The notes under the pieces are model-generated. The model was not told where the DNA came from. It ran no database searches and was given only the letters and a program-made list of their open reading frames with translations. A program made the position numbers and the translations under genes. Below are positions 6,787-24,486 of a stretch of DNA of 31,871 bases, piece after piece. The stretch lies in contig JACOWJ010000018.1 of the NCBI GenBank assembly GCA_016176845.1, forward strand, positions 1 to 31,871, written 5' to 3'. The stretch's first letter is position 1, and every line of letters starts with the position of its first letter. Origin of the DNA: Nitrospinota bacterium. GTDB lineage: Bacteria; 2-12-FULL-45-22; JACOWJ01.

Positions 6787-6982
6787 GGGACTAGGGACTA
6801 GGGACTAGGGATTAGGGGTTAGTAAAAGCACAAGAGCACCAGGCCAGTCTCTGGAGCCAGATGGATAATCCCTAACTTGATCGACTAGGAACTTCCATTT
6901 TTGAGGGGCTAGGAACGAGGAACTAGGGACTAGTGAAAGCTCTTTTTACTAGCCCCTAGCCCCTAATTCCTAATCCCTAACT
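6787..6982 (+). repeat. Heptameric repeats filling the pdhA-pdhB spacer
   Basis: Directly after the pdhA stop codon come copies of CTAGGGA (6787-6823), then a second block (6904-6935), and finally the complementary series of CTAGCCC/CTAATCC units (6947-6982), ending a few bases before the pdhB ribosome binding site. The period is 7 nt. The two ends can pair into a long imperfect hairpin in the mRNA. Confidence 0.85.
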
Positions 6983-6998
6983 TGAAGGGGGGAAGCCG

Positions 6999-7970
6999 AT
7001 GCGTGAGATCAGCTATGCCGAGGCCTTGAACGAGGTCCTCCGGGAGGAGATGAAGCGGGACCCCACCATCTTTGTGGCCGGGGAGGACGTGGGTGCCTTC
7101 GGGGGAGTCTTTGGCGTGACCAAAGGCCTGCTGGAGGAGTTCGGCGAGGAGCGGGTCCGGGATACCCCGATCACCGAGGCCGCCATCGTCGGGTGCGCCA
7201 TCGGGGCGGCAGCGACGGGAATGCGGCCGGTGATCGAGATGATGTTCATGGACTTCATGGGGGTCTGCGTCGACCAGATCGTCAACCAGGCGGCCAAGAT
7301 GCGTTATATGTTCGGGGGGAAGGCCCGCTTGCCCATGGTGATCCGGGCCTGCTGCGGGGCCGGCGTCAGTGCGGCGGCCCAACATTCCCAAAGCCTGGAG
7401 GCCTGGTTTGTCCATACTCCCGGCCTCAAGGTGGTCATGCCCTCTACTCCTTATGATGCCAAGGGGCTGCTGCGCTCTGCGATCGCCGATGACAACCCGG
7501 TGATCTTCCTCGAGCATAAGCTGCTTTACGGGAAGAAGGGCTCCGTGCCGGAAGGAGCCTTTACGATTCCCCTGGGATCCGCCGAGGTCAAGAGGCCGGG
7601 GCAGCACGTGACGTTGATCTCCTGGTCCCGCATGGTGGATGTGTGCGTCTCGGCGGCCCAATCCCTGGCTCAGGAAGGGATCGAGGCGGAGGTGATCGAC
7701 CTGCGCACTCTCACTCCTCTGGACAAACCGACCCTTTTTGCCTCGGTGGAGAAGACGGGCAAGGTGGTCATCGTTCACGAGGCCTGCCTCACGGGGGGAT
7801 TTGGAGGCGAGGTGGCCGCCTTGATCGCCGATGAGGCCTTCGATTGCCTGGATGCCCCCATCAAACGGGTGGCAGCCCCGGATGTCCCCGTCCCGTTCAG
7901 CCCGGTCCTGGAGCGGCATTACATCCCCAACGAACTGCAGGTCCTGCGGGCAGTTCGGGAGATCGTTTAA
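6999..7970 (+). CDS. pdhB: 2-oxoacid (pyruvate/acetoin) dehydrogenase E1 component, beta subunit
   Basis: 323 residues, the usual length. [58 protein letters not shown] and [19 protein letters not shown] are typical of the pyrimidine-domain beta subunit, which completes the E1 active site at the alpha/beta interface; the C-terminal transketolase domain carries [19 protein letters not shown] precedes the ATG. The product should assemble as an alpha2beta2 tetramer with the neighbouring subunit in the cytoplasm. The gene follows a 212-bp repeat-filled spacer and its stop codon abuts the E2 start codon without a gap, implying translational coupling. The segment [13 protein letters not shown], where many relatives have Gly-rich sequence, is somewhat unusual. 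Confidence 0.92.
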
Positions 7971-9197
7971 ATGAATAGAATTATAATGCCCAAATTGGGC
8001 ATGACGATGACCGATGGCAGGGTGGTGGAATGGTTGGTCCAGGAAACCTCCAGGGTGGAGAAAGGGCAGATCGTCCTGCGGATCGAGTCGGATAAGATCG
8101 AGTACGAAGTCGAGGCCCCGGCCTCGGGGACCCTGGCCCGGATTTATGCGGTGGCTTCGGAGGAGGCCCTGCCGGTGGGAAGGCTGCTGGCGGTGATCCT
8201 GGCCGAAGGCGAGGCCCTGAACGAGGAGCTGTTGGCCTCGGAGCTGTCTGCGTTCCCGCCCGTGGCCGACTCCCTGCGTCTTCCCGCCACCTCCTCCGCC
8301 AGCGCCATGACCTCCAGTTCCCGGCCCATCGGGGCCGAGCGGATGAAGGCCTCCCCGGCAGCCCGCAAGCTGGCCGAGGAGAAAGGGGTGGACCTCTCCC
8401 GGGTGGTGGGCACGGGTCCAGGAGGCCGGATTACCCGGGAGGACGTCCTCGCCGCACTGGAAGCCAGCCCTGCCGCTCCATTCCCCGGGGCAGCTCGGGA
8501 GCCCACCCTGGGGAGCTCCATCCCTTTAAGCCGGATGCGAAAGATTATCGCCCAGCGGCTCACGGCCAGCTCCTCCCAGACGCCCCACATCTACCTCTTC
8601 TCGGAGATCGATGCGACCGAGCTCCAGGCCTCGCGGGCCCGCCTGCTCCCCCGGATCGAGGCGGAGACAGGACAACGACTTTCTTACAATGACCTGCTCA
8701 TTCAGGCCGTAGCCCACTCCATCCAGCGCTTCCCGCTGTTCAATGCGACGCTGGAAGGGGAGGTCATCCGGATCCCCGAGGAGATCCACATCGGCCTGGC
8801 CGTGGCGGTAGAGGGGGGGCTGATCGTGCCGGTGATCCGGGGGGTCCATCGGAAGTCCCTGGAGGCGATCGTCCGGGAGCGGGCCGACCTGGTCCAGCGG
8901 GCCCAGAACAAGCGGCTCACGCCCGATGACCTCCAGGGAGGCACCTTTACCCTCTCCAACCTGGGGATGTACGAGGTGGATTATTTTACCGCCATCATCA
9001 ACCCGCCCCAGAGCGCCATCCTCTCCGTGGGCCGGATGGCCCAGCGGCCCCAGGTGGTCGATGGAGAAATCGCGGTCCGGACCATGATGTGGCTGGGGCT
9101 CTCGGCCGACCATCGGGTGGTCGATGGGGCCCAGGCGGCCGAGTTCCTGCAAGAGATCAAACGCGGGCTGGAGAAGCCAATGGAAGAGCAACCCTGA
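7971..9197 (+). CDS. pdhC: 2-oxoacid dehydrogenase E2 component (dihydrolipoyl acyltransferase)
   Basis: 408 residues with classic E2 architecture. Residues 1-80 are one lipoyl domain; ESDKIEYE places the lipoylated Lys at about residue 42. An Ala/Ser/Pro linker follows, then the peripheral-subunit-binding domain (about 125-160: SPAARKLAEEKGVDLSRV, GTGPGGRITREDV). The catalytic acyltransferase domain ends with DHRVVDG, His about 381 and Asp about 385 being the catalytic pair. It accepts the acyl group from E1 and transfers it to CoA, forming the oligomeric core. The start codon follows the E1 beta stop immediately. No E3 (dihydrolipoamide dehydrogenase) gene follows, so the complex must borrow E3 from elsewhere. 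The operon ends convergently with the copper/haem cluster. Confidence 0.92.
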   Translation: MNRIIMPKLGMTMTDGRVVEWLVQETSRVEKGQIVLRIESDKIEYEVEAPASGTLARIYAVASEEALPVGRLLAVILAEGEALNEELLASELSAFPPVADSLRLPATSSASAMTSSSRPIGAERMKASPAARKLAEEKGVDLSRVVGTGPGGRITREDVLAALEASPAAPFPGAAREPTLGSSIPLSRMRKIIAQRLTASSSQTPHIYLFSEIDATELQASRARLLPRIEAETGQRLSYNDLLIQAVAHSIQRFPLFNATLEGEVIRIPEEIHIGLAVAVEGGLIVPVIRGVHRKSLEAIVRERADLVQRAQNKRLTPDDLQGGTFTLSNLGMYEVDYFTAIINPPQSAILSVGRMAQRPQVVDGEIAVRTMMWLGLSADHRVVDGAQAAEFLQEIKRGLEKPMEEQP

Positions 9198-9238
9198 CCT
9201 GGAGAAGGGGTAAGGGAGAAGGGGGGGATGGGTAATTT

Positions 9239-9739
9239 TTACTTGATCTCAAATTTGACATCCGCCGGCCTTAACGCCTTCTTTAACTCGGTCTCGATCT
9301 GCTCTCTTCCGGTAAAACCGATGAAGATATGGGTCACGATTCCCTTCGGATCGATGACGAAGAGCCAGGGCTCTCCGATGACGCCATAGCGCTGGCCTAA
9401 AGCGACCGCCTCGCTTTCCGGCCCCCAAAATTTGGCGGCCCGATGGATCTTCAGAATAGCGGCCATATCCTTCTCATAGTGAGGCCAGAGGTCATGAATA
9501 TTTGACCATACCTTCTCGCAGTAGATGCAGTGGTCTGGATTTCCGAACATCAGGAGAATTACTTTTCCTTCCTCATGAGCCTTTCGGAGATCCTCCGTAT
9601 CTAAGGGGGCTTTGCTCCCTACCTCCACCCGGGGCTTCCCCTCAGGCATCCCTCTTAAGCCTGCATAGGCAGTAGCGGGAAAAACCATCCCGGCCCAAAG
9701 GCACAGAGAAAAAATGATTGGAGTGAAAATTTGTTTCAT
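9239..9739 (-). CDS. Secreted thioredoxin-like protein, second copy (CIYC)
   Basis: 166 residues beginning with a signal peptide (about residues 1-26, ending ATAYA). The thioredoxin fold is indicated by GKVILLMFGNPDHCIYCEK, where C-x-x-C follows a beta strand as in TlpA/DsbE-like proteins, and by the late segment GEPWLFVIDPKGIVTHIFIG, where EPW takes the cis-Pro position. It is clearly paralogous to the thioredoxin-like protein encoded at 10924-11466: both share KVG/EVG-K-APL...DL-KAHE-GKVI-LM. The start overlaps the stop of the preceding multicopper-oxidase-like gene (ATGA), so the two are translationally coupled. Probable periplasmic disulfide reductant or copper-loading partner of the oxidase (inference). 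Last gene of the cluster. Confidence 0.85.
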   Translation of the reverse strand: MKQIFTPIIFSLCLWAGMVFPATAYAGLRGMPEGKPRVEVGSKAPLDTEDLRKAHEEGKVILLMFGNPDHCIYCEKVWSNIHDLWPHYEKDMAAILKIHRAAKFWGPESEAVALGQRYGVIGEPWLFVIDPKGIVTHIFIGFTGREQIETELKKALRPADVKFEIK

Positions 9740-10785
9740 GGTCTTTTCTCCCCTGGCTCTATTTTACTGAGATGATCCATCTTCACATCCAGAACAAAGA
9801 TTACCTCCTCTTTCGTTAATTGAATCGCATAGGAATTTCCATTTTCAGCTTTCCCTGGATCGCCGGGCACCAGCCCGGCCTTCACCTTTTGCGTACCCTC
9901 ATGGTTCTGCTTATCGTACCCCTCTTGATGGGACTCGCGTTCTGTAAACGATGGGGGAAAAGTCACGCTGTGATAAAATGGGAATTTCCCCGGTCGATCG
10001 GGGGTTATGGCGATATCATGTCTCTTGCCGGGATAAAGGGTGATCGAGGATTCTTTCCGGGGCTCGGAAATTGGATAGCCATCCTCATGGGTGAGGGTGA
10101 AACCTTCCGAGAACCTCACCGTATGGGGGAGATGACCGATGTTGGCGAGTCGGATCTTGACCCTTTGACCCTCTTTGACATCCATGATGATCGGATGATC
10201 CCCGGCGACCGCCTTGTCGTTAATGGTCGTGATATCGTTGTCCATCATGGTTTGTGGGTGGCCCGTTTCATGGTGCCCCTCCCCTTTTAGATCCTTGCTA
10301 TTCCAGTCGCTCAGCACATAAACGAATTCTCGATCAAATTTTTGCTCATTCGCTGCCTCCACAATAAAGACGCCATAGAGGCCCCGGCTGATGTGCTCGG
10401 CCATATTCCAGCTGCAGTGATAGAGATGGGTTCCGGCCGGCCTGGCGATAAATTCGTAGGTATATTCATGGTCGGGATCAACGGGAACCTCTTCCTGGAG
10501 TGCAACCCGGGGAGGCAAATGGAGTCCGTGAAAAAAAAGCCCATGTTTGGCCCCGCTTTGATTCCTCAAACGAATCTTCACCGTATCCCCTTCCCTGACC
10601 CGGATCTCAGGCCCCGGGACCGTCCCGTTATAGGTCCAGGCCATGAATTTTGTGCCATTGAGGACGATGGCTCCTTCAGTTACAGTGAGAGTGATCTCGC
10701 GGGTTTCGGCAAGAGCATTGCTGAAAGGGAGAAGAAGGACAAAAGCAGAAAACAGAAAACACAAAACGGATATCATGGATATCAT
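9736..10785 (-). CDS. Two-domain multicopper-oxidase-like protein with degenerate copper sites
   Basis: About 349 residues when started at the ATG that begins a good signal peptide (cleavage near NALA); a longer TTG-started frame exists to 10809. The two cupredoxin domains align with the complete oxidase of the neighbouring gene. Domain 1 reads FFHGLHLPP where the family has HWHG, and THLYHCSWNMAEH where the family has HCH, so it keeps the type-1 Cys and flanking His but loses type-2/3 ligands. Domain 2 reads PHTVRFSEGF and FPFYHSVTFP in place of HLHG and WHCHFVPH, losing its Cys and most His ligands. It is unlikely to reduce oxygen; a type-1 copper electron carrier or copper-binding role is more plausible. 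Coupled by ATGA overlap to the following thioredoxin-like gene. Confidence 0.85.
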   Translation of the reverse strand: MISMISVLCFLFSAFVLLLPFSNALAETREITLTVTEGAIVLNGTKFMAWTYNGTVPGPEIRVREGDTVKIRLRNQSGAKHGLFFHGLHLPPRVALQEEVPVDPDHEYTYEFIARPAGTHLYHCSWNMAEHISRGLYGVFIVEAANEQKFDREFVYVLSDWNSKDLKGEGHHETGHPQTMMDNDITTINDKAVAGDHPIIMDVKEGQRVKIRLANIGHLPHTVRFSEGFTLTHEDGYPISEPRKESSITLYPGKRHDIAITPDRPGKFPFYHSVTFPPSFTERESHQEGYDKQNHEGTQKVKAGLVPGDPGKAENGNSYAIQLTKEEVIFVLDVKMDHLSKIEPGEKRP

Positions 10786-10810
10786 GGAGCAGAACCCCCT
10801 TTGTATCAAG

Positions 10811-10883
10811 CTAAGTTTTAAGTTTTAGGTGTTAAGTTTTAGGTTTCTTGCTTAACACTTAAAACCTAAAACTTAAAACTTCC
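10811..10883 (-). repeat. Heptameric inverted repeat (AAGTTTT / AAAACTT units)
   Basis: Units of AAGTTTT/AGGTGTT (10814-10848) are followed by their complement CTTAACACTTAAAACC... (10851-10881). Both halves have strict 7-nt spacing. The pair forms a long A/T-rich hairpin between the two thioredoxin/oxidase gene pairs. Confidence 0.85.
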
Positions 10884-10923
10884 CGGAAATCCTGTAAAAA
10901 AAGGAAATTCCTATACGATCTAG

Positions 10924-11466
10924 TTACTTTACCTGAGTTACTTTACTTTCTCCTAAGAGCTCTGTAATATTTTGTTTAAAGATCTCGCTGGGAACGAAGA
11001 CCAAATAGATAAACCGCACTATGCCTCGTTTATCAATAATGAATAGCCAGGGCTGTCCTTCCGCCCCGTAGGCTGCTTTCAATTGAACTCCCTCCGGATG
11101 GGGCAAAATCATCTTGGCATGTTCGGTCTGTCTCTGAACAAAAACCGCGCGATCATCAAAATTTTTCGTCTCTTTCATGATTTCATCGATATACCGATCC
11201 ATCCTGTCACACCAGGGACAGTGGCTGGGATACCCCAGCATCAAGGCGATGACCTTCCCCCCTTCATGGGCCTTGATCAGGTCGGGAACCAACAGAGGGG
11301 CCTTATCTCCTACCTTGATCCTGGACTCACCCCGGGCAATCCCCCGGATCGGCAACTCTGTGCCATAGGCGGGGGATAGAACCCTCGATCCATAGATGGG
11401 TCCAAGGGAAAGAAGAAAAAGGGAAACCCCGATCTCCATCCGGCCCATAAAAGACTTTGCTTTCAT
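10924..11466 (-). CDS. Secreted thioredoxin-like protein, first copy (CPWC)
   Basis: 180 residues. A hydrophobic segment at about 11-30 acts as signal peptide or anchor. GKVIALMLGYPSHCPWCDRM gives the thioredoxin-type C-x-x-C with the reactive PW pair; GQPWLFIIDKRGIVRFIYL gives the strand pair around the cis-Pro region. This resembles TlpA/peroxiredoxin-like periplasmic proteins that work in cytochrome maturation or copper-centre assembly. GGGAGGAT seven bases before ATG supports the start. It is preceded by the complete multicopper oxidase gene and one 81-bp repeat and followed by the degenerate oxidase gene, so the oxidase-thioredoxin order occurs twice. A helper role in copper insertion or cysteine reduction of the oxidase is inferred from this pairing. 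Confidence 0.85.
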   Translation of the reverse strand: MKAKSFMGRMEIGVSLFLLSLGPIYGSRVLSPAYGTELPIRGIARGESRIKVGDKAPLLVPDLIKAHEGGKVIALMLGYPSHCPWCDRMDRYIDEIMKETKNFDDRAVFVQRQTEHAKMILPHPEGVQLKAAYGAEGQPWLFIIDKRGIVRFIYLVFVPSEIFKQNITELLGESKVTQVK

Positions 11467-11516
11467 CGGTTTATCCTCCCGACCATCACGACCTATCAGT
11501 GTGGGTTACCGGAGAT

Positions 11517-11597
11517 TTACCGTGTAAATGCCCGAACCTCTCAGGAGTCCATTTTCATTTCCGGGGGCGGCCAACTCTGCTTGGCCATGTCGGTTTT
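11517..11597 (-). repeat. 81-bp intergenic repeat, copy 3
   Basis: Aligns without gaps over 81 bases with the copies at 12961-13041 and 16581-16661, differing from the former at about 9 positions. The core GGGGGCGGCCAACT..GCTTGGCCATG forms a GGCCAA/TTGGCC hairpin, and TACCGT at one end can pair with the ACGGT-like other end. Here it lies between the oxidase stop and the next gene. Confidence 0.85.
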
Positions 11598-11659
11598 CAC
11601 GGTACCCGCAGGGAGAGGGCCAGCCGGACTGGCCCCTCTCCCCTGCATCCCGATACAGC

Positions 11660-12934
11660 TTACTTCTTCCGGGAGACCTTCTCCTTCTCCGATGGGTTCT
11701 CGCTCGTGATCTTGGTGGGCATCCCCAAGGGATACGCATCCAGGTCGATTCCTTTGGGATAGAGATTGCCTTTGTCATCCTTTCCCAAATAGACGACGGC
11801 CATCAGCAGCCCGCCGTGATAGACCCCGTCATTGGTGGCATGGGGAACGAAGTGGCAATGCCATACCCATCTTCCCTCCTGATCCGCGATAAAGATATAG
11901 TCTTTCCTTTCGCCGGGCAGGATGGAGACCGAGTCCGAGCGCATATCCTTATTGGAGATCGCTCCATCGTAGGGATAGACATTCCGGCCGTCCCAGGCGA
12001 TCCAGTGGAGCGTGTGGCCATGAAGGTGCATATTATGGGGCCAGCTGCCGAAGTTGATGAACCGGACCCGGATCTTCTGGCCCTCCTGGGCCAGGATCAC
12101 GTTGGGGTATTCGTCGGTCCAGGCGTTCCCATTGATGGTGAACAGGTTGTAATGGGCGATATTCCTGGGATGACCGACTTCTGCGCTCTGCTTCGTTTCG
12201 GCAGAGGTGGGCTTAAACCCCTCCTCCTTGGAGAACTTGGAGTCCCACTCATCCAACAGGACCAGCAGGTCCTGGTCCACCTTCTCCTCCCCCTTGCCAT
12301 GGATGACAATGCCGCCGTACAGCCCCATATCCATATGCTCATTGGCGTTCACGTGGCAGTGATAGATGTGGGTGCCCACGGGAGAAGCCACAAACTCATA
12401 GGTAAACATCTGGTCGGGCTTGACCGGCACCTGGGCCACGTTCATCGTGCCGTCCTGATCGTACCGGAGGAACGTCGGTCCGTGGATGTGGATGGTGTGG
12501 TTATTCTTGCTCAGGTTCCTGAAGAGCACCCGGACCAGGTCGCCTTCATCGGCAATAATGGTGGGACCGGGGACCGGCCCCTGGGGATAGGCCTTCGGCT
12601 TGCCATGGGGGACGAAGGCCCATACGGGAAAATCCACGCCTGCGATGTCCTGGGTGGCTTCAACGGAATCGATCTCGTAGACGAGGGTCCGGCCGCTCAG
12701 GGGGACTCCGAGCTTTTTCGCCTGGCCGATGGCCCATGTCCCCCCGGAAGTCTGAGGATCGACCTTATTAATCACCTTGACCAGCCCGTTCTTCACGTTC
12801 ACATCCACGCTGCTCACATCGATCAGCGTCCGGACCTCTTTGATGGGCAGGCCGATCGTTACTGCACGGGCAGGGGCTGTAGCCAGGGCCAAGATAAAGG
12901 CCATGGCCACGAGAATGAATGTTGGTTTCTTCAT
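11660..12934 (-). CDS. Periplasmic multicopper oxidase, two cupredoxin domains, complete copper ligands
   Basis: 424 residues from an ATG with AAAGGAGG eight bases upstream and a clear signal peptide (MKKPTFILVAMAFILAL..., cleavage near ARA). A longer frame exists but begins inside a repeat. Copper ligands appear in pairs: NHTIHIHGPT and THIYHCHVNANEH in domain 1, PHNMHLHGHT and WVWHCHFVPH in domain 2. These provide the HxH/HCH sets of a trinuclear cluster plus type-1 sites, so an oxygen-reducing oxidase of metals, phenols or another donor is expected; two-domain oxidases of this kind usually act as trimers. Oxygen use by a probably anaerobic host is notable. The gene sits between the cupredoxin-like gene and a thioredoxin-like gene within the sigma-54-linked cluster. 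Substrate not determinable. Confidence 0.9.
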   Translation of the reverse strand: MKKPTFILVAMAFILALATAPARAVTIGLPIKEVRTLIDVSSVDVNVKNGLVKVINKVDPQTSGGTWAIGQAKKLGVPLSGRTLVYEIDSVEATQDIAGVDFPVWAFVPHGKPKAYPQGPVPGPTIIADEGDLVRVLFRNLSKNNHTIHIHGPTFLRYDQDGTMNVAQVPVKPDQMFTYEFVASPVGTHIYHCHVNANEHMDMGLYGGIVIHGKGEEKVDQDLLVLLDEWDSKFSKEEGFKPTSAETKQSAEVGHPRNIAHYNLFTINGNAWTDEYPNVILAQEGQKIRVRFINFGSWPHNMHLHGHTLHWIAWDGRNVYPYDGAISNKDMRSDSVSILPGERKDYIFIADQEGRWVWHCHFVPHATNDGVYHGGLLMAVVYLGKDDKGNLYPKGIDLDAYPLGMPTKITSENPSEKEKVSRKK

Positions 12935-12960
12935 CTGGACAGCCTCCTTTCTTACCGTTC

Positions 12961-13041
12961 TTACCGTGAAAATGCCCGAGCCTTTCCGGAGTCCATTTTC
13001 ATTCTCGGGGGCGGCCAACTTTGCTTGGCCATGACGGTTTA
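12961..13041 (-). repeat. 81-bp intergenic repeat, copy 2
   Basis: Same length and orientation as the other two copies, about 84-89% identical. In the transcript direction it begins with the TAA stop codon of the cupredoxin-like gene and ends just before the ribosome binding site region of the oxidase gene. Arms GAAAATG/CATTTTC, CCCGAG/CTCGGG and GGCCAA/TTGGCC are all present; the first two interlock as in a pseudoknot. Confidence 0.88.
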
Positions 13042-13914
13042 CTTCAGTTCAAAGTTCACCCGGACCATGCCCTTGGTGGGTACTTCTATCTCCTGGTTGA
13101 GGACGACCGACTGCTCGTAAATCGGCCTCCCATCCTCATCCTGTCCCTTCACCTTCCAGCTCTCGTGCCACAGCTTCACGGTATATTTCCCCGGGGGGAT
13201 CTGGTCGAGGGTGAATGTGCCCTCCGGTCCCGTGACCGCATGGTAGGGGTGATCGAAGACCATAAAATGTCCCTCCATATGGGGGTGGGAATCGCAGGTC
13301 ACCTCGACCAGGCCCGTCTTCCGCACCCGCTTGATGATCACCTGGTCCTTCTTGGGCTGGCCGAAGTTGAACATCTGGATCCCGTTCACCGCCATGTTGG
13401 CGTTGTGCAAGAAGGGGTCGGCGTTCTTCACCGACAGGTCGGTCCCCTTCACCATCGTGAAGACATGGGGACCGAAGTGGCATTTCTCCTGGGTCAGCCA
13501 GGTCTCCTTCGTCCGGTCGATCTTCTTGCCCTGGGAGATCCCCTCCAGGAAAACCACGGCATACCGGACCTCCCCGTTGGCCGAGATGAGCAGGGTCTCG
13601 GAGGGGGCCTCCTTTCCGCAAAGGTCCGGGTCCTTGGTCACCTTGAGAGGGGCTAAGGTCTGGGCCGGACCAACATACTTCACCTGTCCCGTGATCGTCC
13701 CTCCATCGGGGACCTCGACCTCATCGTAAGCCTGGCCGATACCCCCCAGCCCGACCGCGAGGGCCAGGGTTGCCAGAAGGCCCATACAGCCTCGCTTCGC
13801 GAGGATTGAAAATTGAAAATTGAAAATTGAAAATTGAAAATTTAACATCCAATTTCCCAACGATTTAACAAATCGTTTTCCCCTGGAGGAATCTTCGCGT
13901 GTTCTTCGAATCAT
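13039..13914 (-). CDS. Cupredoxin-like periplasmic protein (plastocyanin-type copper site plus carboxypeptidase-regulatory-like fold)
   Basis: The mature part (about 225 residues) starts after the signal sequence MGLLATLALAVGLG...QAYDE. It holds GGTITGQVKYVG, then FLHNANMAVNG and VTCDSHPHMEGH. One His, then Cys, His and Met resemble the type-1 copper ligands of plastocyanin-like proteins. A C-terminal beta-sandwich follows (GPEGTFTLDQIPPGKYTVKLWHES), typical of carboxypeptidase-regulatory-like domains. The chosen ATG has GGGAGAAAA upstream. It gives a 291-residue precursor whose leader includes a repeated NFQFSIF heptapeptide encoded by 7-bp tandem repeats. An internal ATG at 13785 directly starting the signal peptide is an alternative. 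Probable periplasmic electron carrier or copper-binding protein for the cluster. Confidence 0.8.
   Translation of the reverse strand: MIRRTREDSSRGKRFVKSLGNWMLNFQFSIFNFQFSILAKRGCMGLLATLALAVGLGGIGQAYDEVEVPDGGTITGQVKYVGPAQTLAPLKVTKDPDLCGKEAPSETLLISANGEVRYAVVFLEGISQGKKIDRTKETWLTQEKCHFGPHVFTMVKGTDLSVKNADPFLHNANMAVNGIQMFNFGQPKKDQVIIKRVRKTGLVEVTCDSHPHMEGHFMVFDHPYHAVTGPEGTFTLDQIPPGKYTVKLWHESWKVKGQDEDGRPIYEQSVVLNQEIEVPTKGMVRVNFELK
13805..13841 (-). repeat. Heptameric tandem repeat ATTGAAA inside a leader-coding region
   Basis: Five near-perfect ATTGAAA units. Because three units make 21 bp, in the minus-strand frame they encode a 7-residue peptide repeat (NFQFSIF) without a stop codon in the long frame of the cupredoxin-like gene. 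Confidence 0.85.
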
Positions 13915-13933
13915 CTTTTTCTCCCTGTTCGCC

Positions 13934-13974
13934 TTGCAAGAATTGCAAATTGGAAAGTGCAAATTGCAAAGTGC
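13934..13974 (-). repeat. Heptameric repeat TTGCAAA / GTGCAAA
   Basis: Units TTGCAAG, AATTGCAAA, TTGGAAA, GTGCAAA, TTGCAAA, GTGCGGG follow each other at 7-nt steps just ahead of the ribosome binding site of the cupredoxin-like gene. Confidence 0.7.
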
Positions 13975-14005
13975 GGGAACTGCAATTTTTAAAATTTCCA
14001 ATTCA

Positions 14006-14068
14006 CTAACCCCTAACCCCTAACCCCTAACCCCTAACCCCTAACCCCTAATCCCTAATCCCTAACTT
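14006..14068 (-). repeat. Nine heptameric CTAACCC units at the cytochrome gene end
   Basis: Six CTAACCC, two CTAATCC and one CTAACTT in perfect 7-nt register. The stop codon and last residues (KLGIRD) of the cytochrome are encoded by the first units, read on the minus strand. Confidence 0.92.
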
Positions 14069-16030
14069 GATTTCAGCCCAGGACGAGATGGACATCATCA
14101 GCCCCGCCTCCCCATTTGAGCCATCCCATACGTTGAGGGCCAGGGGGATCGTCCCTCCCGGCTCAAACTGTACATCCAGGTCGGACTCCCCCGTCTTGTG
14201 GGATCGGAGCAAGACCACCTTCCAGGTCCCATCCTCCCAGACTCCCTTCCCTCGTACGCTTTGGCTCGCCGGAGGCTGAGGGGAGAGCGGTGAGTCGGGA
14301 CCGGCCTGGTTGACCTCCTCGATGGAAAGGCCTCGCTGGAGATCCTCCTGCCGGTCGGCCCTCCAGATCCAAAGGTTGACCGGCCGACGCGGATCGCCCC
14401 GGAAGAAGGGGGGCCGTTCTTTGCCCCGGCCGACCATTACCGGGAACTGTAGGGCAACTGCATCATGAAGGGCCTTGGGCTTCTTGCCTTTGGAGGCCAA
14501 TGGGCGGGCATATGTCCCATCAAGCAGGCCGTCCTCCTTCCCTTCCCCCTCCGCGGGCAAGACGTCCTTAAAGCGGTCATCCCATTCCAACCGGAAGCCG
14601 ATCTCCTGGCCGTTATCCAGGGCCCGCATCTCTACCTGGTCCACCGAAGGATTCTGCCAGCGAGGCCTGACGAAGGCCTGCCCCCCCAAAGGGATGTTCA
14701 GCGCCGGGGCCTGCTGCCAGCGGGGGTCGTTGGGATCCAACGGGAGGGAACCTTCCACCCGCTTCGGCCGCAAGACCCTTTCCTCTCCCCTTTCCGGCCG
14801 GATCAGGGAGGTGACATAGTTGACCAAATGCCAGCGTTCCTCCACGGTGAGGGAGTCCGCGTAGGAGGGCATAGGCGTGCCATTGAGGCCGGTGGTGAAG
14901 CGCAGATAGATCTCCTGGGCATTGTGTCCCCCCTTGTACTGCCAGCCCTTGGTGAGGTTGGCCGGCAGGATGGGAAACTCCCATTCGTCCTTCAGGGTGG
15001 CGGCATTGGCCCCATTGCCCTTTCCTCCCTTCCCATGGCACTGCCAGCACTCCATCATCTGGAAGATCTCCTTCCCCTTGGCAAGGCTATCGGGGGTGGA
15101 CGGGATGGGATGGCTCATGGGAACGACCGCCTGATAGGGATCGGAGTCGGGGTCGGAGAAGGCCAGGGCGAAGGATTTGAGGTATTGGATCACCTCCCAG
15201 CGCTCCCGTTCCGTCAAAAGCCCTTTCCATGCAGGCATACTGGTTCCCGAAACCCCCTGGCTGATCGTCTGAAAGAGGTCCTCATCGGTGGGGAGCTCGC
15301 CGGAACCGGTGGTACGGAACTTAAAGAGGCCTCGCGTGAAGTCTCGGGGCCGGGGGTTCAGGTAATCGGCCACAGGGCCATCTCCCTTCCCCTCGGGGCC
15401 ATGGCAAAACCTGCACCGCTTCGCATACACATCCTTGCCGGCTGCGCGAGCCTCCCGGGTTGCCGGAACCTTCCCCTCCCCTCCTTGGCCCTCTTTGGAA
15501 GCCCCGGGGTGGGCCAGCTCCTCCAGGGCCAGAAGGACCTTCCAGATCCCCTCCTTCCCCAGCTCTTTCTCCCAGACATGCAAGACGGCATCCGAGGGAG
15601 ACACCCCCGTGGAGGCTCCCATCGCCCCCCCGGCCAAGCGCTCGAAGACGGTTGGCTCCTTTATCCGGGCCAGGGTTTCCGGAGCGGTGAGGTCCACCGG
15701 CCCCGGTCGAAACGCTTGGGACATGGGACCATCCCCTTTGCCACCGACTCCGTGGCAGGGTCGGCAGTTAAGCTGATACAGGACCTGCCCCTCCTCCCGG
15801 TACCTCTCGACCAGTAGTTCCCTGGCCCTATCCAGGTTGATCTCCTTTAGCCCGGTCCGCTGGATGAGCTCCTGGACGGCCTCCTGGCTTGGATGGTGCA
15901 GGGGATTGATCGACCCCTCGGGCCACCCCCCCATCTCTGAGGCGGCCCAATCCAGCCCTCCCCAGCCAATCAGCAGGAGAGCAGAGATGAGGATCAAGGC
16001 CATCCCCTGCGCTTTTCTCTTTTCAAACAC
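14048..16030 (-). CDS. Triheme cytochrome c with C-terminal ethylbenzene-dehydrogenase-like haem-binding domain
   Basis: About 660 residues from a GTG start that has AGGAGG five bases upstream; an ATG at 16081 would add 17 residues with no ribosome site. A hydrophobic segment near the start (MALILISALLLIGW) is a signal anchor. Three cytochrome c domains follow, each with CxxCH: CRPCHG, CRFCHG and CWQCHG. Each is followed by a G-K-G-[DN]-G loop, and the second and third by Met ligand candidates (GTSMPAW, GTPMPSY). The last 220 residues (RPRWQNPSVDQVEMRALDN, IGFRLEWDDRFKDV, RRPVNLWIWRADR, ISSWAEIKLG) resemble the haem-b gamma subunit domain of the DMSO-reductase/ethylbenzene dehydrogenase family. 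The fusion suggests a periplasmic electron relay. It is the first gene behind the sigma-54 promoter and probably the electron partner of the oxidases. Confidence 0.88.
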   Translation of the reverse strand: MFEKRKAQGMALILISALLLIGWGGLDWAASEMGGWPEGSINPLHHPSQEAVQELIQRTGLKEINLDRARELLVERYREEGQVLYQLNCRPCHGVGGKGDGPMSQAFRPGPVDLTAPETLARIKEPTVFERLAGGAMGASTGVSPSDAVLHVWEKELGKEGIWKVLLALEELAHPGASKEGQGGEGKVPATREARAAGKDVYAKRCRFCHGPEGKGDGPVADYLNPRPRDFTRGLFKFRTTGSGELPTDEDLFQTISQGVSGTSMPAWKGLLTERERWEVIQYLKSFALAFSDPDSDPYQAVVPMSHPIPSTPDSLAKGKEIFQMMECWQCHGKGGKGNGANAATLKDEWEFPILPANLTKGWQYKGGHNAQEIYLRFTTGLNGTPMPSYADSLTVEERWHLVNYVTSLIRPERGEERVLRPKRVEGSLPLDPNDPRWQQAPALNIPLGGQAFVRPRWQNPSVDQVEMRALDNGQEIGFRLEWDDRFKDVLPAEGEGKEDGLLDGTYARPLASKGKKPKALHDAVALQFPVMVGRGKERPPFFRGDPRRPVNLWIWRADRQEDLQRGLSIEEVNQAGPDSPLSPQPPASQSVRGKGVWEDGTWKVVLLRSHKTGESDLDVQFEPGGTIPLALNVWDGSNGEAGLMMSISSWAEIKLGIRD

Positions 16031-16070: not shown

Positions 16071-16140
16071 ATTCGTGTCAACTTAACCCCTGGGCCAAGA
16101 TGGCCGCGCTCCCAGGACCAAACCTTAAGTTGTCACGAAT
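16071..16140 (-). promoter_or_regulatory. Leader hairpin upstream of the cytochrome gene
   Basis: Arms ATTCGTGTCAACTTAA (16071-16086) and TTAAGTTGTCACGAAT (16125-16140) are complementary except one pair. An inner CCTGGG (16089-16094) / CCCAGG (16111-16116) stem adds to it. It lies in the predicted leader transcript between the sigma-54 promoter and the GTG start, so it could act on RNA stability or translation. Confidence 0.6.
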
Positions 16141-16206
16141 GGTAAGCCATTGCTCCGAAAATCCAGGTGTGGGAAACCCCTTCCGGAAGGTTTTCCTGTA
16201 AAGGAA

Positions 16207-16222
16207 AGCAATCCTGGTGCCA
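16207..16222 (-). promoter_or_regulatory. Sigma-54 (-24/-12) promoter of the copper/haem cluster
   Basis: The minus strand reads TGGCACCAGGATTGCT, matching the sigma-54 consensus TGGCAC-N5-TTGCW with the required GG-N10-GC spacing. It points at the cytochrome gene 165 bp away. An activator of the matching class is encoded close by. Confidence 0.85.
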
Positions 16223-16341
16223 GGTGGGCTAGAAAAATGAAAACCCTAAGAATATTTCTCTTCCGGGGCCTGGAGCAATGGTTAACGGGGAGCTCCTCCC
16301 CTCCCCTCGCCGGCCCCAAAGGAAGAGGGAAAGTGCTAGAG

Positions 16342-16391
16342 TGTTGCAAAAAACCCTGGATGCAACAACCATGTTGCGAGGTGTTGCAACA
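16342..16391. promoter_or_regulatory. Activator binding region: five TGTTGC half-sites
   Basis: TGTTGCAA at 16342, TGCAACA at 16361, TGTTGC at 16372 and the perfect palindrome TGTTGCAACA at 16382-16391 lie 130-185 bp upstream of the sigma-54 promoter, the usual distance for enhancer-binding proteins. The first two form a dyad with a 12-bp centre. Predicted target of the adjacent sigma-54 activator (inference). Confidence 0.7.
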
Positions 16392-16497
16392 GTGTTCCGA
16401 GAGCTCGCCTCGAAATGTCCGATTTCGGAATTTTGAAGATCAAAGAGAGTAGCTGTTAATCCCAACAGCCTCGGATGCAGGCGCAGGAGGAGGGCTA

Positions 16498-16662
16498 ATG
16501 ATGGAAGTAAAACATTACGAAGAGGAGCTTCTGCAAGAAATTAAGAGGCTTCCTGCCGTGCTCCCTGTTATTGTAAACTTTTACCGTGAAAATGCCCAGG
16601 GCTCTTGGAGGCCCATTTTCATTCGCGGGGGCGGCCAACTTGGGTTGGCCATGTCGGTTTAG
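16498..16662 (+). CDS. Small open reading frame (54 aa) ending in the 81-bp repeat
   Basis: ATGATGGAAGTA follows a strong GGAGGAGGG ribosome binding site. The first 27 residues (MMEVKHYEEELLQEIKRLPA...) look like the N-terminal helix of DUF2281-type antitoxin proteins (EELLKEI..LP). From residue 28 on, the frame is entirely encoded by the 81-bp repeat (YRENAQGSWRPIFIRGGGQL...). This suggests that repeat insertion truncated a small antitoxin-like gene and supplied a new C-terminus and stop codon. It overlaps the 3' end of the convergent DUF1264 gene by four bases. Protein production is plausible from the ribosome site but unproven, and function is unknown. A remnant of a gene is the main alternative. 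Confidence 0.45.
   Translation: MMEVKHYEEELLQEIKRLPAVLPVIVNFYRENAQGSWRPIFIRGGGQLGLAMSV
16581..16661 (-). repeat. 81-bp intergenic repeat, copy 1
   Basis: As in copy 2, the element begins in the transcript direction with the TAA stop codon of the upstream gene, here the DUF1264 gene. It has the longest GGCCAAC/GTTGGCC hairpin of the three. It differs from copy 2 at about 13 of 81 positions, with no gap. Confidence 0.88.
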
Positions 16663-17192
16663 GGTGCAACAGGACCGGGTCCTTCCGTCCGGTGCTTATG
16701 GCCGACGGACTGGGGATGTCCCACCTCGCCGTTGGGCGGATTGGCACCGCGCGGCCGCCAGAGGTCGAAGATGATCCCGTCGGTCTTGGCAGCCGCCTCA
16801 GCCAGGGCCTTGGCCTTCTCCTCGGGCACATCCAAGATTTTCACCCGGCCTGTGGCGATCTCCATGGCGTGGTCGTGATAGTACTTGTTCCAGATGTCCA
16901 GCCGCACGTTCGGCCGGGTCAGGGATTTGGCGATGAAGTACTCCACGCCAACCAGCAACGCCTTGGGATCGGTGGACTCGTAGAGCAGACACTCCATGAC
17001 ATCGTCCGAGACGGGTTTACAATAATGATGAAACGGCCCCATCACGACGCCGTCTACCACATGCGGGGCCACGATGTGGATATCGTGACCATCGGCTGGC
17101 GATGCCTTCTTGGCTTCCTGGGCCATCGCCATGCAGGACAGCAAGATCAGCACGCCGAATGAGCCGACGGCGTGAATACGGAGACGGAACAT
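16659..17192 (-). CDS. Secreted DUF1264 (oil-body-associated-protein-like) protein
   Basis: 177 residues starting with a signal peptide (GVLILLSCMAMAQ). The body contains MGPFHHYCKPVSDDVMECLLYES, ALLVGVEYFIAKSL and WNKYYHDHAMEI, the conserved blocks of DUF1264, known in plants as oil-body-associated proteins and of unsettled function in bacteria. Conserved His/Cys residues (HHYCK, YYHDH) hint at metal binding, but that is inference. GAGGGAG before the ATG supports the start. It lies 92 bp downstream of the sigma-54 activator gene on the same strand and its stop codon forms the first bases of an 81-bp repeat. A Pro/Gly/His-rich tail (VGHPQSVGHKHRTEG) follows the domain. It may belong to the regulator's transcript rather than to the sigma-54-driven cluster. 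Confidence 0.85.
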   Translation of the reverse strand: MFRLRIHAVGSFGVLILLSCMAMAQEAKKASPADGHDIHIVAPHVVDGVVMGPFHHYCKPVSDDVMECLLYESTDPKALLVGVEYFIAKSLTRPNVRLDIWNKYYHDHAMEIATGRVKILDVPEEKAKALAEAAAKTDGIIFDLWRPRGANPPNGEVGHPQSVGHKHRTEGPGPVAP

Positions 17193-17284
17193 GGCAATCT
17201 CCCTCTCATGGAAAACGAAGCTTTCCCCCCTCTTTCTGCGGTCGACGGCGAAAAAGGCGGCACGGGTTTATGGGCGCTTACCGC

Positions 17285-18751
17285 TCACGGTCCCTTGATC
17301 TGGTACTCCTTCATCTTGCGCCAGAGGGTAGTCCGATCGATCCCCAGTAATCTGGCTGCCCTGGAGCGGTTCCACCCTGTCTCCTTCAAGGCCTCCAGGA
17401 TCCCCTTGGATTCCGGAGCTGCGGGTGCGGCGGTCACCGGCCTTCGGCGGCCCGGGCAATCGTCCCCCTTCTTGTCCTGCAATAGGGTCAAGGGGAGGTG
17501 CTCGGGCTGGATGGTCCTGCCGCGGCACTTCACGAAGGCATGCTCGATCGCGTTCTGCAACTCCCGGATGTTCCCCCGCCAATCATAGTCCAATAACCGG
17601 CCCAAAGCCTCCTGGGAGATCCCGTAGATTTTGTTCTTGGCCTCCCGGTTGAACCGTTCGATAAAATGTTCCGCCAGCAGGGGGATATCTTCCCTTCTCT
17701 CCCGCAGTGGGGGAAGAGAGATGGGGACCACGTTGAGCCGATAGTACAGATCCTCCCGAAACTTGCCCTGGAGCATCAACTCCCGGAGGTCCTGGTTGGT
17801 GGCGGCAATGACCCGGACATCTATTTTGCGCACCCGGGTCTCTCCCACCCGTTCGATCTCTCGATCCTGCAGGACTCGGAGCAACTTCAGCTGGATGACC
17901 GGGCTGATCTCTCCGATCTCGTCCAGGAAGATCGATCCCCCGTGGGCCAACTCGAAGCGGCCGACCTTGTCCTTGATGGCGCCCGTAAAGGCCCCCTTCA
18001 CATGGCCGAACAGCTCGCTCTCCAGAAGGTTTTCGGAAAGGGCAGAGCAATCGACCTTGATAAATGGGCCCTCAGCCCGCGGGCTGTGATAGTGGGTGGC
18101 GCGAGCAACCAGCTCCTTGCCGGTGCCTGTCTCTCCCTCGATGAGCACCGTGGCATCGCTGTCCGCTACGGCCTCGATCAGCTCATAGACCTCCTGCATC
18201 CGGTGGTTCTTGCCGACGAGGTTGCCGAAGCCATATCGGCCTTTTAGCTCCTGCCGGAGGGAGGAGATCTCGGTGATGTCTCGGAGGACAGCGATTGCCC
18301 CTCGGATTCGTCGCTCTTTGTCCCGCAGGACCGCGGTGCTGAGCAGCACCAACCTGGACTCCCCGTCCCTCCGCCGGATCGCGACCTCGCGATCTCTGAG
18401 CCCCATCTTATTATCCAACGACTGACAGAGGGCGCACTCCTCCCCGCAGAGTTTCACCTGAAAGAGGTCCGTACATTTCTTCCCGATGGCCTCCTCCTGG
18501 GAGAAACCCGTAATCCCCTCGGCAGCCTTGTTGAAATTGGTGATGGTCATCTCCAGATCGTGGGCGAGGATCCCATCGGTTACGCTGTCGAGAATCGCCT
18601 CCAGGTTCTCTTTTTCCGCCAGCAGCCCCTCGATTTCCCTTTTGGACTCCTCCAGTCCCTTAAGAAGGGAAGCTTCCGCGCGTCGACTCAGGTCTATCCC
18701 TTCGATGAAGGACTTGATCGGCGCTGGCTTTTTGGACTCCTCTAAAAGCAA
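17285..18751 (-). CDS. PAS-domain sigma-54-dependent transcriptional activator (NtrC family)
   Basis: 488 residues. Order: helical linker (25-55), PAS domain (about 52-160) and AAA+ domain (about 175-405). The AAA+ domain has Walker A GETGTGKE at 206-213, the sigma-54 contact loop GAFTGA at 253-258 and Walker B FLDEIG at 275-280. A Fis-type helix-turn-helix closes the protein ([21 protein letters not shown]). There is no receiver domain, so the PAS domain is the likely sensor; it contains four Cys (C93, C102, C106, C109 in KKCTDLF...LCGEECALC), suggesting a redox, Fe-S or metal signal. The start is TTG, supported by AGGAGA seven bases upstream. It most likely binds the TGTTGC cluster at 16342-16391 and activates the copper/haem operon (inference from position and class). 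Confidence 0.92.
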
Positions 18752-18773
18752 AGCCTATTCTCCTGCCGGAAAA

Positions 18774-18849
18774 AGTTTTAAGTTTTAGGTGTTAGGTGTT
18801 AGGTGTTAAAACCTAAAACCTAAAACCTAAAACCTAAAACCTAAAACCT
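18774..18849 (-). repeat. Heptameric inverted repeat (GTGTTAG / AAAACCT units)
   Basis: Left half: AAGTTTTAAGTTTTAGGTGTTAG... to 18808; right half: six AAAACCT units to 18849. Both have 7-nt period and can pair. It spans the spacer from just after the DsrE-like stop codon to just before the ribosome binding site of the sigma-54 activator. Confidence 0.92.
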
Positions 18850-18851
18850 CT

Positions 18852-19211
18852 TTATAAAGTGATCGTTGTCGTCTCAGCCATCAGGCTTGCCAAGGTGGCT
18901 ACCCCGGCCACCTCCGCCCCATCGATCAAGTCCGTTTGGTCGGCCTTGAAGATGGCGGCGCAGTTGCCTCAGAGGTAGACCTTGACCCGCGCCTCGGCGA
19001 GCTTATGGACCATCTCTTTGACCGGGGGGAAGGGCGGGACATGAAGCCCTTCAATCGCCCTCTTTTGGCCCAACAGGACCCCTTCGTTGAGCAAGAAGAT
19101 GATGATTTCGGAGCCCTGGGCGAGCATCGCATTAGCCAAGGCCAGCGCCGAGCTGGCCCGGACCACATCATCGGTGGAGTGAGTGATCGCTAGAAGGAAC
19201 GGCTTGTCCAT
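18852..19211 (-). CDS. DsrE-like selenoprotein with in-frame UGA (Sec81)
   Basis: The frame opens MDKPFLLAITHSTDDVVRAS, a DsrE/DsrF-like sulfur-relay fold, and continues GQKRAIEGLHVPPF...EARVKVYL, then meets TGA (18971-18969). Reading through as selenocysteine gives U-G-N-C-A-A-I-F followed by a sensible domain end (LIDGAEVAGVATLASLMAE) and TAA: 119 residues, a normal DsrE length. DsrE family proteins have a Cys near this point, and a redox U-x-x-C pair results. The next gene upstream, 28 bp away on the same strand, is selD, itself read through a UGA. A probable cytoplasmic sulfur- or selenium-transfer protein. The SECIS hairpin was not folded; a nonsense mutation is the alternative, made less likely by the conserved C-terminus. 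Confidence 0.8.
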
Positions 19212-19239
19212 ATCCCCTCCTTTGAATTGAGGTACGATG

Positions 19240-20283
19240 TCAAGGGCAGACCCAGATCTTTCCCTGTGGGTCCTCCACCACCTCTCCGACCTCGGCCGCC
19301 TCGGTTACCCCAGCTTCCCTCAGTCGGGCCAGAAGCCGATCCTTCCCCTCCCTGGGGGCACTGATCAATAGTCCTCCGGAGGTCTGGGCATCGCAGAGGA
19401 CCAGCTGGGCCTCCTCGGAGATCGAAGGATCATAGGTCACAAACCCATCAATAAACTTGTGGTTGGAGAGACTGCCTCCCGGAACGACCTTCTCGCGCAC
19501 CAGTTCCCAGGCCTCGGGCAGCACCGGGACCTGGGAAAGGTAAACCATGGCCCCTACGCGGCTAGCCGCGGTCATCTCGTGGAGATGTCCCAGGAGCCCG
19601 AAGCCCGTCACATCGGTAGCCGCATGGACTCCTATCTCTCGCATGACTTCCGAAGCGGCGCGATTCAGGAAGGTCATGAGGCGCGTGACCTTCGCGATGG
19701 TCTCCGGGCTCACCCGATCCCGCTTGATCCCGGTGGTAATGATTCCGATCCCCAAGGGTTTGGTCAGGATCAGGACGTCCCCCACCCGGGCGGCAGCATT
19801 GGAGATGACCTCTCCGGGCCGGGCCAGCCCAATCACCACCAGGCCGTACTTCGGCTCCGGGTCATCGATCGAGTGGCCGCCCACGATGGAGATGCCGGCC
19901 TCCCCGGCCTTGGCGGCCCCCCCTTTCAAAATCTCGGCCAGGGTATCCAGGGATAACGTCCGCATGGGGAAACCGACCAGGTTCAAGGCCACCAAGGGTT
20001 TGACCCCCTTGGCGTAGACATCGCTCAGGGAATTGGCCGCCGCAATGGCCCCGAAGCTATAGGGATCATCCACCACGGGAGTAAAATAGTCCACCGTCAT
20101 GACCAGCGCCAGCTCATCGCTGATCCGGTAGACCGCCACGTCATCCGATGTATCGAATCCCATCAAAAGGTTGGGATCGCTCACCACGGGTAGCTGGCGC
20201 AGGACCTGCGCCAGGTCATTCGGACTGAGCTTGCAGGCTCAGCCGGCCCCATGGCTTAAGGCGGTAAGCCGAACCTTTTCCAT
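19240..20283 (-). CDS. selD: Selenophosphate synthetase SelD, selenocysteine form (Sec15)
   Basis: 347 residues when the in-frame TGA (20241-20239) is read as selenocysteine. The N-terminus is MEKVRLTALSHGAG-U-ACKLSP, with Sec at the position of the catalytic Cys17 of E. coli SelD (HGAGCGCKISP), followed by the Gly-rich and Asp motifs MGFDTSDDVAVY, TVDYFTPVVDDPYSFGAIAAANSLSDVYA and GGHSIDDPEPKYGL. It makes selenophosphate from selenide and ATP for Sec-tRNA synthesis. AAGGAG seven bases before the ATG fixes the start; a caller that stops at TGA would begin at 20187 and lose the active site. CCTGC/GCAGG and CAG/CTG pairing just after the UGA is a possible bacterial SECIS. Together with the downstream selenoprotein this implies a functional Sec-decoding system in the organism. 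Confidence 0.93.
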
Positions 20284-20296
20284 GTCCATCTCCTTA

Positions 20297-20330
20297 TTAG
20301 CTCATAGCTCGTAGCCTATAGCTCAAAAGC
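20297..20330 (-). repeat. Heptameric AGCTCAT-type repeat in front of selD
   Basis: TTAGCTC, ATAGCTC, GTAGCCT, ATAGCTC units at 7-nt steps end at the ribosome binding site of selD. They are complementary to the repeat at the end of alaS (20560-20583), so the two can bracket the spacer as a hairpin. Confidence 0.85.
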
Positions 20331-20403
20331 GTAGTCCCAATCCCCTTCTCACCGTAACTTCCATGGCTCCTCATCTTACAGTGACCTGGTAAATTAAGGA
20401 CTT

Positions 20404-20487
20404 AGATTGCTTCGTCGCTACCGCTCCTCGCAATGACATGGAAGGCCAACCTTGTCATTGCGAGGAGCGGTAGCGACGAAGCAATCT
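20404..20487. repeat. Perfect 35-bp inverted repeat
   Basis: Arms 20404-20438 and 20453-20487 are exact complements around a 14-nt loop. The sequence type (ATTGCTTCGTCGC...CTCCTCGCAATGAC) recurs widely in unrelated bacterial genomes as a dispersed palindrome. It lies between alaS and selD and could act as a strong RNA hairpin or a small mobile element. Confidence 0.92.
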
Positions 20488-20559
20488 CAAAATGGAAATT
20501 CCTTACCTTGGACTTATCGATCCAAAAGATCGCCACAGGTTTGAAAATAGACCCTTCCA

Positions 20560-23364
<2,805 letters not shown>

Positions 23365-23366
23365 TC

Positions 23367-24341
23367 TTATTTTCCTTGTGAAGAATACTGCCCCTCGAAA
23401 TGGTGAGCCGTGAGGGCATGATACGATTCCCCGGCCTTTTCGATCGGATCCACGTGCACGATGGCCTGATTCAGACTCGGGATATGATGGAGCAGCTCGT
23501 GACGTACCTCCTCGGACAGATTGTGACCCGCGATCACCGATAGGTGGCCATCCACACTGATGTGAAGCTCGACCAAAACGTGATGGCCCACCCAGCGGGC
23601 CCGGATATCATCGACCCGTTGGACGCCCGGGATCTCCAGGGCTACCTGCTTGATCTTCTCGATCGTCTGAGGCTCAATGGCATCCATCAAACGAGACAGG
23701 ATCTCCTTCCCGACCTCCAAGACAATGAAAAGGATGGCCACGGTAATGGTCAGGCCGGCGATCGGGTCGGCCAACGGGTAGCCCAGACCCACCCCCCCCA
23801 GTCCCGCCAAAGCGGCCAGGGAGGTCAACCCATCGATCCGTGCATGCTCTCCATCCGCCACCAGGGCGGCGCTGCCAATCTCCCGGCCCACCCGCATGCG
23901 GTACTGGGCCACCGCCTCGTTTCCCAAGAAACCCACCCCGGCCGCTCCCATGGCCCACCCCAGGTGATCGGGGGCCTCGGATCGAATCAGCTTGAGGCAA
24001 GACTCGTAACCTGCGACCACCGCGCTGAGGACGATCACGATCAAGATGATCACGCCGGCAATGTCTTCGGCCCGATCGTACCCGTACGTGAACCTCCGGT
24101 TAACCTGGCGCCGGCTTAACCCGAAGGCAAGCCACAGCGGCAGAGCGGTAAAGGCATCGGCCAGGTTATGGATGGTATCGGCCAACAGAGCGGCGCTACC
24201 ACTCAGGGCGACCACCAGGGCCTGCAATAGGCCCGTGGCCAACAGGACCACCAGAGAGACCTTCAAGGACCGCAGCCCTTTTTGAGTGTCCGCCAGGGTA
24301 TTTCCTGCCCAGTCAAGCTCTTGATGCGTGTGCTGCAACAT
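23367..24341 (-). CDS. Cation diffusion facilitator family transporter
   Basis: 324 residues with about six membrane segments (for example LVVLLATGLLQALVVALSG, IAGVIILIVIVLSAVVAG, LTITVAILFIVLEVG). ADTIHNLADAF supplies the H-x3-D and DGEHARIDGLTS the second metal-site Asp/His/Asp of the transport centre. The C-terminal cytoplasmic ferredoxin-like domain (VQRVDDIRARWVGHHVLVELHISVDG, then HLSVIAGHNLSEEV and IVHVDP) matches the CDF regulatory domain. It exports divalent metals such as Zn or Fe in exchange for protons; the metal cannot be named with confidence. It ends two bases before alaS. Its start is preceded by heptameric repeats rather than a normal ribosome binding site, so expression may depend on coupling with smpB. 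Confidence 0.92.
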   Translation of the reverse strand: MLQHTHQELDWAGNTLADTQKGLRSLKVSLVVLLATGLLQALVVALSGSAALLADTIHNLADAFTALPLWLAFGLSRRQVNRRFTYGYDRAEDIAGVIILIVIVLSAVVAGYESCLKLIRSEAPDHLGWAMGAAGVGFLGNEAVAQYRMRVGREIGSAALVADGEHARIDGLTSLAALAGLGGVGLGYPLADPIAGLTITVAILFIVLEVGKEILSRLMDAIEPQTIEKIKQVALEIPGVQRVDDIRARWVGHHVLVELHISVDGHLSVIAGHNLSEEVRHELLHHIPSLNQAIVHVDPIEKAGESYHALTAHHFEGQYSSQGK

Positions 24342-24380
24342 AAATAGCTCATAGCTCGCGGCTCATCGCTCAACGCTCTT
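24342..24380 (-). repeat. Heptameric TCATAGC-type repeat in front of the CDF gene
   Basis: AAATAGC, TCATAGC, TCGCGGC, TCATCGC, TCAACGC units begin at the base next to the CDF start codon. They are complementary to the block at 24452-24486. Confidence 0.85.
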
Positions 24381-24451
24381 AATACAACTCCACATAATGC
24401 TGTTCCAATCGTTCTTCACGAGTGCAAAGGGGTTTGTACCCAGGAATCAAC

Positions 24452-24486
24452 CATGAGCTTTGAGCTATGAGCCATGAGCTAATAAG
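24452..24486 (-). repeat. Heptameric CATGAGC-type repeat at the smpB stop codon
   Basis: CATGAGC, TTTGAGC, TATGAGC, CATGAGC, TAATAAG units. The TAG stop of smpB lies inside the outermost unit. Partner of 24342-24380. Confidence 0.85.

What the first reader, a model, noticed from the sequence alone, without database searches (positions are those of the whole stretch)
6787..24486. Strict 7-nt tandem repeats fill many gene-to-gene spacers, with a different heptamer in each
Heptameric arrays occur at 6787-6982 (CTAGGGA), 10811-10883 (AAGTTTT), 13805-13841 (ATTGAAA), 13934-13974 (TTGCAAA), 14006-14068 (CTAACCC), 18774-18849 (AAAACCT), 20297-20330 with 20560-20583 (TAGCTCA) and 24342-24380 with 24452-24486 (TCATAGC). 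Only the period is shared, not the sequence. Most occur as two complementary blocks, the first starting at or within the stop codon of the upstream gene and the second ending at the ribosome binding site or start of the next. This suggests a process that copies 7-nt units and then inverts them, giving intercistronic hairpins that could couple translation or process mRNA. Cyanobacterial heptanucleotide STRR sequences are the nearest known analogue; the inverted stop-to-start placement is not something I know from them.
Basis: partly seen in the sequence, partly recalled or inferred. Interest (0 to 1): 0.8.

Follow-up and report, generated by a model that had tools for sequence, protein, structure and literature searches.

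The report
Seven-base repeats inside mobile-looking hairpin elements
The gaps between genes in this uncultured bacterium are littered with short hairpin elements whose stems are built of seven-base repeats. They look like copies of a few modular dispersed DNA elements, some with ends shared by very distant bacteria, and not like a signal grown separately between each pair of genes.

Summary
The period-7 arrays are real and genome-wide. In 1.518 Mb of the window's own genome there are 391 intergenic arrays of period 7, against 5-16 at each other period from 5 to 11 and 3 in shuffled spacers. "A different heptamer in each spacer" is wrong: about six heptamer families recur (GTTTTAR, YTAGGGR, GAGCTAT, ACAGGGR, ATTGNAA, ATGNAAA). 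The "copy then invert" idea is not supported. Paired arms keep one polarity per family (153 pairs in one order, 1 reversed), loops recur, and arms of one element match each other no better than arms of different elements.

Many arrays are payload stems of ~100-bp modular dispersed elements. These have a conserved left end, TAAYTTRAT-CGYATAGGAATTTCCWTTTT (208 copies), a variable hairpin, and a right end YTAAYTTRA. The same ends with other hairpins occur in the sister genome (73 copies) and in genomes outside its phylum. RNA-level selection was not detected. Arrays often overlap stop codons (38 genes) and spare ribosome-binding sites, as insertions filtered by selection would. Inverted heptamer pairs are already known in Xanthomonas and heptamer elements in Geobacter. 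What is new here is the modular ends, the swapping of unrelated heptad hairpins, and the fixed polarity.

The parts
6786..6822 (+). YTAGGGR array starting in the stop codon (TGA 6784-6786) of the E1-alpha-like gene; first of two chained elements, its right arm reduced to AATCCCTAACTTGA (about 6869-6881)
   Evidence: sequence read
6873..6901 (+). Left end of second element: TAACTTGATCGACTAGGAACTTCCATTTT
   Evidence: left-end PWM score 34.9
6906..6985 (+). YTAGGGR hairpin payload and right end CTAACTTGA (6977-6985), just upstream of the RBS/ATG at 6999
   Evidence: fold -35.9 kcal/mol, z -5.7; sequence
9817..9845 (+). Another left-end copy (TAATTGAATCGCATAGGAATTTCCATTTT) inside the 3' part of the ORF 9736-10785 (-)
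   Evidence: PWM score 48.3
10806..10885 (-). GTTTTAR hairpin (arrays 10812-10827 and 10851-10881) with right end TAGCTTGA at 10806-10813
   Evidence: fold z -5.0
10898..10926 (-). Left end TAACTAGATCGTATAGGAATTTCCTTTTT; its TAA is the stop codon of the gene 10924-11466 (-)
   Evidence: PWM score 49.6; spacer print
13805..13842 (+). ATTGAAA array (5.4 units), not paired with 13941-13974
13941..14003 (-). ATTGNAA-family hairpin: arm 13941-13974 pairs with 13985-14003
   Evidence: structure
14006..14066 (-). YTAGGGR array of 8.7 units, unpaired; encodes the last residues (LGIRD) and the TAG stop of the cytochrome-like gene 14048-16030 (-)
   Evidence: C23 14048
18773..18849 (-). GTTTTAR hairpin, arms almost adjacent
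   Evidence: fold -38.9 kcal/mol, z -8.8
20298..20325 (+). Degenerate ATAGCTC-type arm
   Evidence: score 35
20405..20486 (.). GATTGCTTCGTCGC...GCAATGAC palindrome (another dispersed repeat, 38 copies) lying between the two GAGCTAT-family arms
20560..20582 (+). GAGCTAY-type arm overlapping the end of alaS; it encodes the AlaRS C-terminus and TAG stop
24344..24481 (-). GAGCTAT-family hairpin (arms 24344-24372 and 24453-24481) between smpB and a cation-efflux gene; the smpB stop abuts the array
   Evidence: fold z -5.7

Best explanation
The arrays are stems of dispersed, modular, palindromic intergenic elements. Shown: one large group has a fixed left end (TAAYTTRAT-CGYATAGGAATTTCCWTTTT), an exchangeable hairpin payload and a right end YTAAYTTRA, about 100 bp in all. 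A second element type has CAAATAACTTTCCCAT-like inverted ends. The ATTGNAA and ATGNAAA families lie outside both, some beside GC-rich mini-palindromes. In most payload families the stem is a run of heptamers with fixed polarity, and copies differ by whole 7-nt units. Inferred: the elements spread as units (copies in trans, chaining and nesting included). Unit number then changes by replication slippage, for which heptamers are the favoured long unit in bacteria (Mrazek 2007, as cited in PMC4679880). Selection removes insertions that hit promoters, RBSs or gene bodies and tolerates those at gene 3' ends, where a heptamer holding TAG, TAA or TGA supplies a stop in all three frames within 21 nt. 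The moving enzyme is not identified; a Y1/HUH transposase acting in trans, as for REPs, is a guess. Any effect on RNA is secondary.
For: 391 intergenic period-7 arrays. Polarity 153:1, recurrent loops, unit numbers 2-8, no within-element arm correlation. Left end 208 copies, 2 expected in shuffled sequence, conserved position by position, with six or more payload types behind it. Left-end intervals hold 137 of 391 arrays but only 9.8% of intergenic bases; the second element type holds a further 31. Left end with <=2 mismatches: 73 copies in the sister genome, 15 in G337, 15 in G274, 0 with reversed control patterns. Right-end word behind 11 of 34 of these against 3.8% at random positions, and the same payload plus right end in G001 and G066 with 2 mismatches in 33. 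A left end in the sister genome carries heptad arms of a different heptamer, CAGAAGT (L260). Insertion-like filtering: RBS zone spared, stops overlapped; 38 genes take their stop from an array, TAG 58% against 29% genome-wide. 22-28% of intergenic bases lie in dispersed repeats.
Against: No target-site duplication (left and right ends uncorrelated, p = 0.24), no usable empty site, no Y1 transposase or reverse transcriptase found in the own genome, which is only 68% complete. About half of the arrays lie in neither element type. Loop lengths of ATTGNAA and ATGNAAA pairs vary widely, so those families may not spread as whole units. Slippage is inferred from copy comparison, not from strains.
Confidence: 0.68

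Rival explanations
1. Functional intercistronic RNA hairpins: heptamer stems are selected in mRNA to couple translation, stabilise or process transcripts.
For: Strong predicted hairpins: median z -5.8 for array segments against -0.9 for array-free spacers; most arrays lie in same-strand spacers; clear hairpins in the window.
Against: No sense/antisense difference (48 vs 42), although G-U pairs would favour one strand; no orientation preference (69 vs 58); same frequency in convergent spacers; arms do not covary within elements. Any inverted repeat folds.
Confidence: 0.12
2. Per-locus tandem duplication of a chance heptamer followed by inversion or hairpin-templated copying.
For: Period-7 slippage is generally favoured in bacteria (PMC4679880, PMC4692102); variable loops in ATTGNAA and ATGNAAA.
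Against: Fixed polarity 153:1, few families, recurrent loops and ends, arm identity not above permuted pairs.
Confidence: 0.06
3. Telomere-like addition: a templated 3'-end extension adds a G-rich heptamer to both ends of a double-strand break, which are then joined, giving G-first inverted pairs like fused telomeres.
For: G-first polarity in five of six families here and in 16 of 18 scorable pairs in other phyla.
Against: No RVT_1 reverse transcriptase in the assembly; conserved loops and ends; GAGCTAT family has the other polarity.
Confidence: 0.04
4. Protein-binding sites (global regulator sites made of heptamers), as proposed for Geobacter metallireducens.
For: Geobacter has multicopy sites of four or five tandem heptamers, mostly in pairs (PMC2700814).
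Against: Six or more unrelated heptamers in one genome, placement at gene 3' ends, no promoter preference (divergent spacers 0.84 arrays/kb against 2.2-2.4 in the others).
Confidence: 0.07

Closest known systems
Heptameric GGGNATC repeats of Xanthomonas and Nostoc (Rehm et al. 2015, PMC4692102)
   Same: Intergenic heptamers, preferably between aligned ORFs and close to stop codons or starts, unit number varies, 70-75 convergent (inverted) pairs per Xanthomonas genome.
   Different: One heptamer type per genome and a G-quadruplex reading; no shared element ends or exchangeable payloads described in the passages read. Here ATTGNAA and GTTTTAR lack the GGG tracts.
Multicopy heptanucleotide elements of Geobacter metallireducens (PMC2700814)
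   Same: Several heptamer families in one genome (GGGACCG, 49 copies; MTYCTGA sites of five tandem units, mostly in pairs). The sister genome G001 carries CAGAAGT/MTYCTGA-like arms behind the left end.
   Different: Described as regulator sites; modular ends and fixed polarity not mentioned in the passages read.
TAACTGA direct repeats of Beggiatoaceae (MacGregor 2015, PMC4679880)
   Same: Heptamer arrays in spacers, spread over distant phyla.
   Different: One heptamer, direct (one indirect set only), just upstream of start codons; here the zone next to the start is avoided.
Cyanobacterial STRR heptamers
   Same: Short tandem heptamers, several per genome.
   Different: From general knowledge, not inverted element stems.
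MITEs, REPs and REPINs (PMC10969869, PMC3116915, PMC2817692)
   Same: Short dispersed intergenic palindromes, mosaic and chained, probably moved in trans.
   Different: No GTAG/GGAG-tagged REP structure was noticed, no transposase identified in this genome, no TSD, and payload hairpins unrelated to each other share the same ends.

Membership tests
Long simple sequence repeats of heptamer type (STRR/LSSR) | Tandem 7-nt units beyond chance | tested here: met
   391 intergenic arrays, 3 in shuffled spacers
Long simple sequence repeats of heptamer type (STRR/LSSR) | Unit number varies between strains | not testable with these tools
   No second strain held; copies within the genome differ by whole units
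Xanthomonas/Nostoc GGGNATC type | G-tract heptamer able to form a G-quadruplex | tested here: not met
   Only YTAGGGR and ACAGGGR have GGG; GTTTTAR, ATTGNAA, ATGNAAA and GAGCTAT do not
MITE | Terminal inverted repeats | tested here: inconclusive
   Second element type has inverted ends; main type has direct, not inverted, end words
MITE | Target-site duplication | tested here: not met
   Left and right words uncorrelated in isolated elements, p = 0.24
MITE | Parent transposase in the genome or relatives | tested here: inconclusive
   PF01797 absent here, present in six of six other left-end-bearing genomes, but no left end beside those genes
REP/REPIN | GTAG/GGAG (or CGTC) tag at the foot of a 20-40 bp palindrome, with RAYT | not tested
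   No systematic tag search was made; no Y1 transposase in the assembly
Known structured RNA | Match to an Rfam family | tested here: not met
   No Rfam match in the window

The most novel reading that the evidence does not exclude
A previously undescribed, cross-phylum family of payload-swapping mini-elements (left end YATAGGAATTTCC, right end TAAYTTRA) carries unrelated hairpins, most often heptad-stemmed ones with a G-rich arm first, and is moved in trans by an unidentified enzyme that recognises the ends, whatever the hairpin sequence.
Probability: 0.4. Interest if true: 0.75.

Novelty: new variant of a known kind. Interest (0 to 1): 0.55.

Why it matters
Heptamer excess in bacterial spacers has been noted for decades without a settled explanation. 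Here one genome holds six unrelated heptamer families, and four of them recur behind one left end. This ties the heptamer puzzle to modular palindromic elements that also occur in distant bacteria, and makes it testable: find the enzyme, test slippage by unit length, test why polarity is fixed. It also shows short non-coding elements supplying stop codons and C-termini to dozens of genes.

Tried and rejected
TSD test: none. Empty-site search by flank joining: only chained elements, nothing usable. Y1 transposase and reverse transcriptase in the own genome: none. Left end beside Y1 transposase genes of other genomes: none. Left end in plasmids: only chance-level hits; in viral contigs: mostly chance-like matches, one AT-rich element-like set. 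Literature search for the left-end string: only unrelated papers. G-quadruplex as common cause: rejected, several families lack G tracts. Stops in all frames as the reason for period 7: only partial. Two-strand stops are over-represented (15 classes against 9.4 expected), but any period not divisible by 3 would do.
Full report
Setting. The window is contig C23 (31,871 bp) of a fragmented assembly (61 contigs, 1.53 Mb, 68% complete) with one other genome of its order in the sample searched (G001). I took 1,518,260 bp of it in stretches and called genes with a simple script (coding 82%). Gene ends rest on that script.

Noticed in passing
window 21737-21759 (-), also 25613-25635, 30550-30572, 31212-31234: A short dispersed repeat (CCTGTCCTGAGCGGAGTCGAAGG-like) sits in frame inside coding sequence, including alaS (peptide GPVLSGVEG).
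   Followed up: partly
window 11563-11589, 13007-13033, 16627-16653: Three copies of a GGGGGCGGCCAACTTNGNTTGGCCATG repeat (76 copies in the genome) at the edges of the multicopper-oxidase/cytochrome cluster.
   Followed up: partly
window 16072-16139: Inverted repeat TTCGTGTCAACTTAA...TTAAGTTGNCACGAA (48 hits genome-wide) flanking a GC-rich core; another dispersed palindrome family.
   Followed up: no
window 20405-20486: GATTGCTTCGTCGC...GCAATGAC palindrome (38 copies), which also occurs as payload behind the YATAGGAATTTCC left end.
   Followed up: yes
own genome, e.g. C16 near 20300-20336; G274 loci L305, L311: GACAGGATTGACAGGATTTACAGGAT-like payload (about period 9) behind left ends in this genome, G001 and G274.
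   Followed up: partly
window 25741-25834: 24-bp tandem repeat (3.9 units) inside the penicillin-binding-protein-like ORF, coding for a low-complexity stretch.
   Followed up: no
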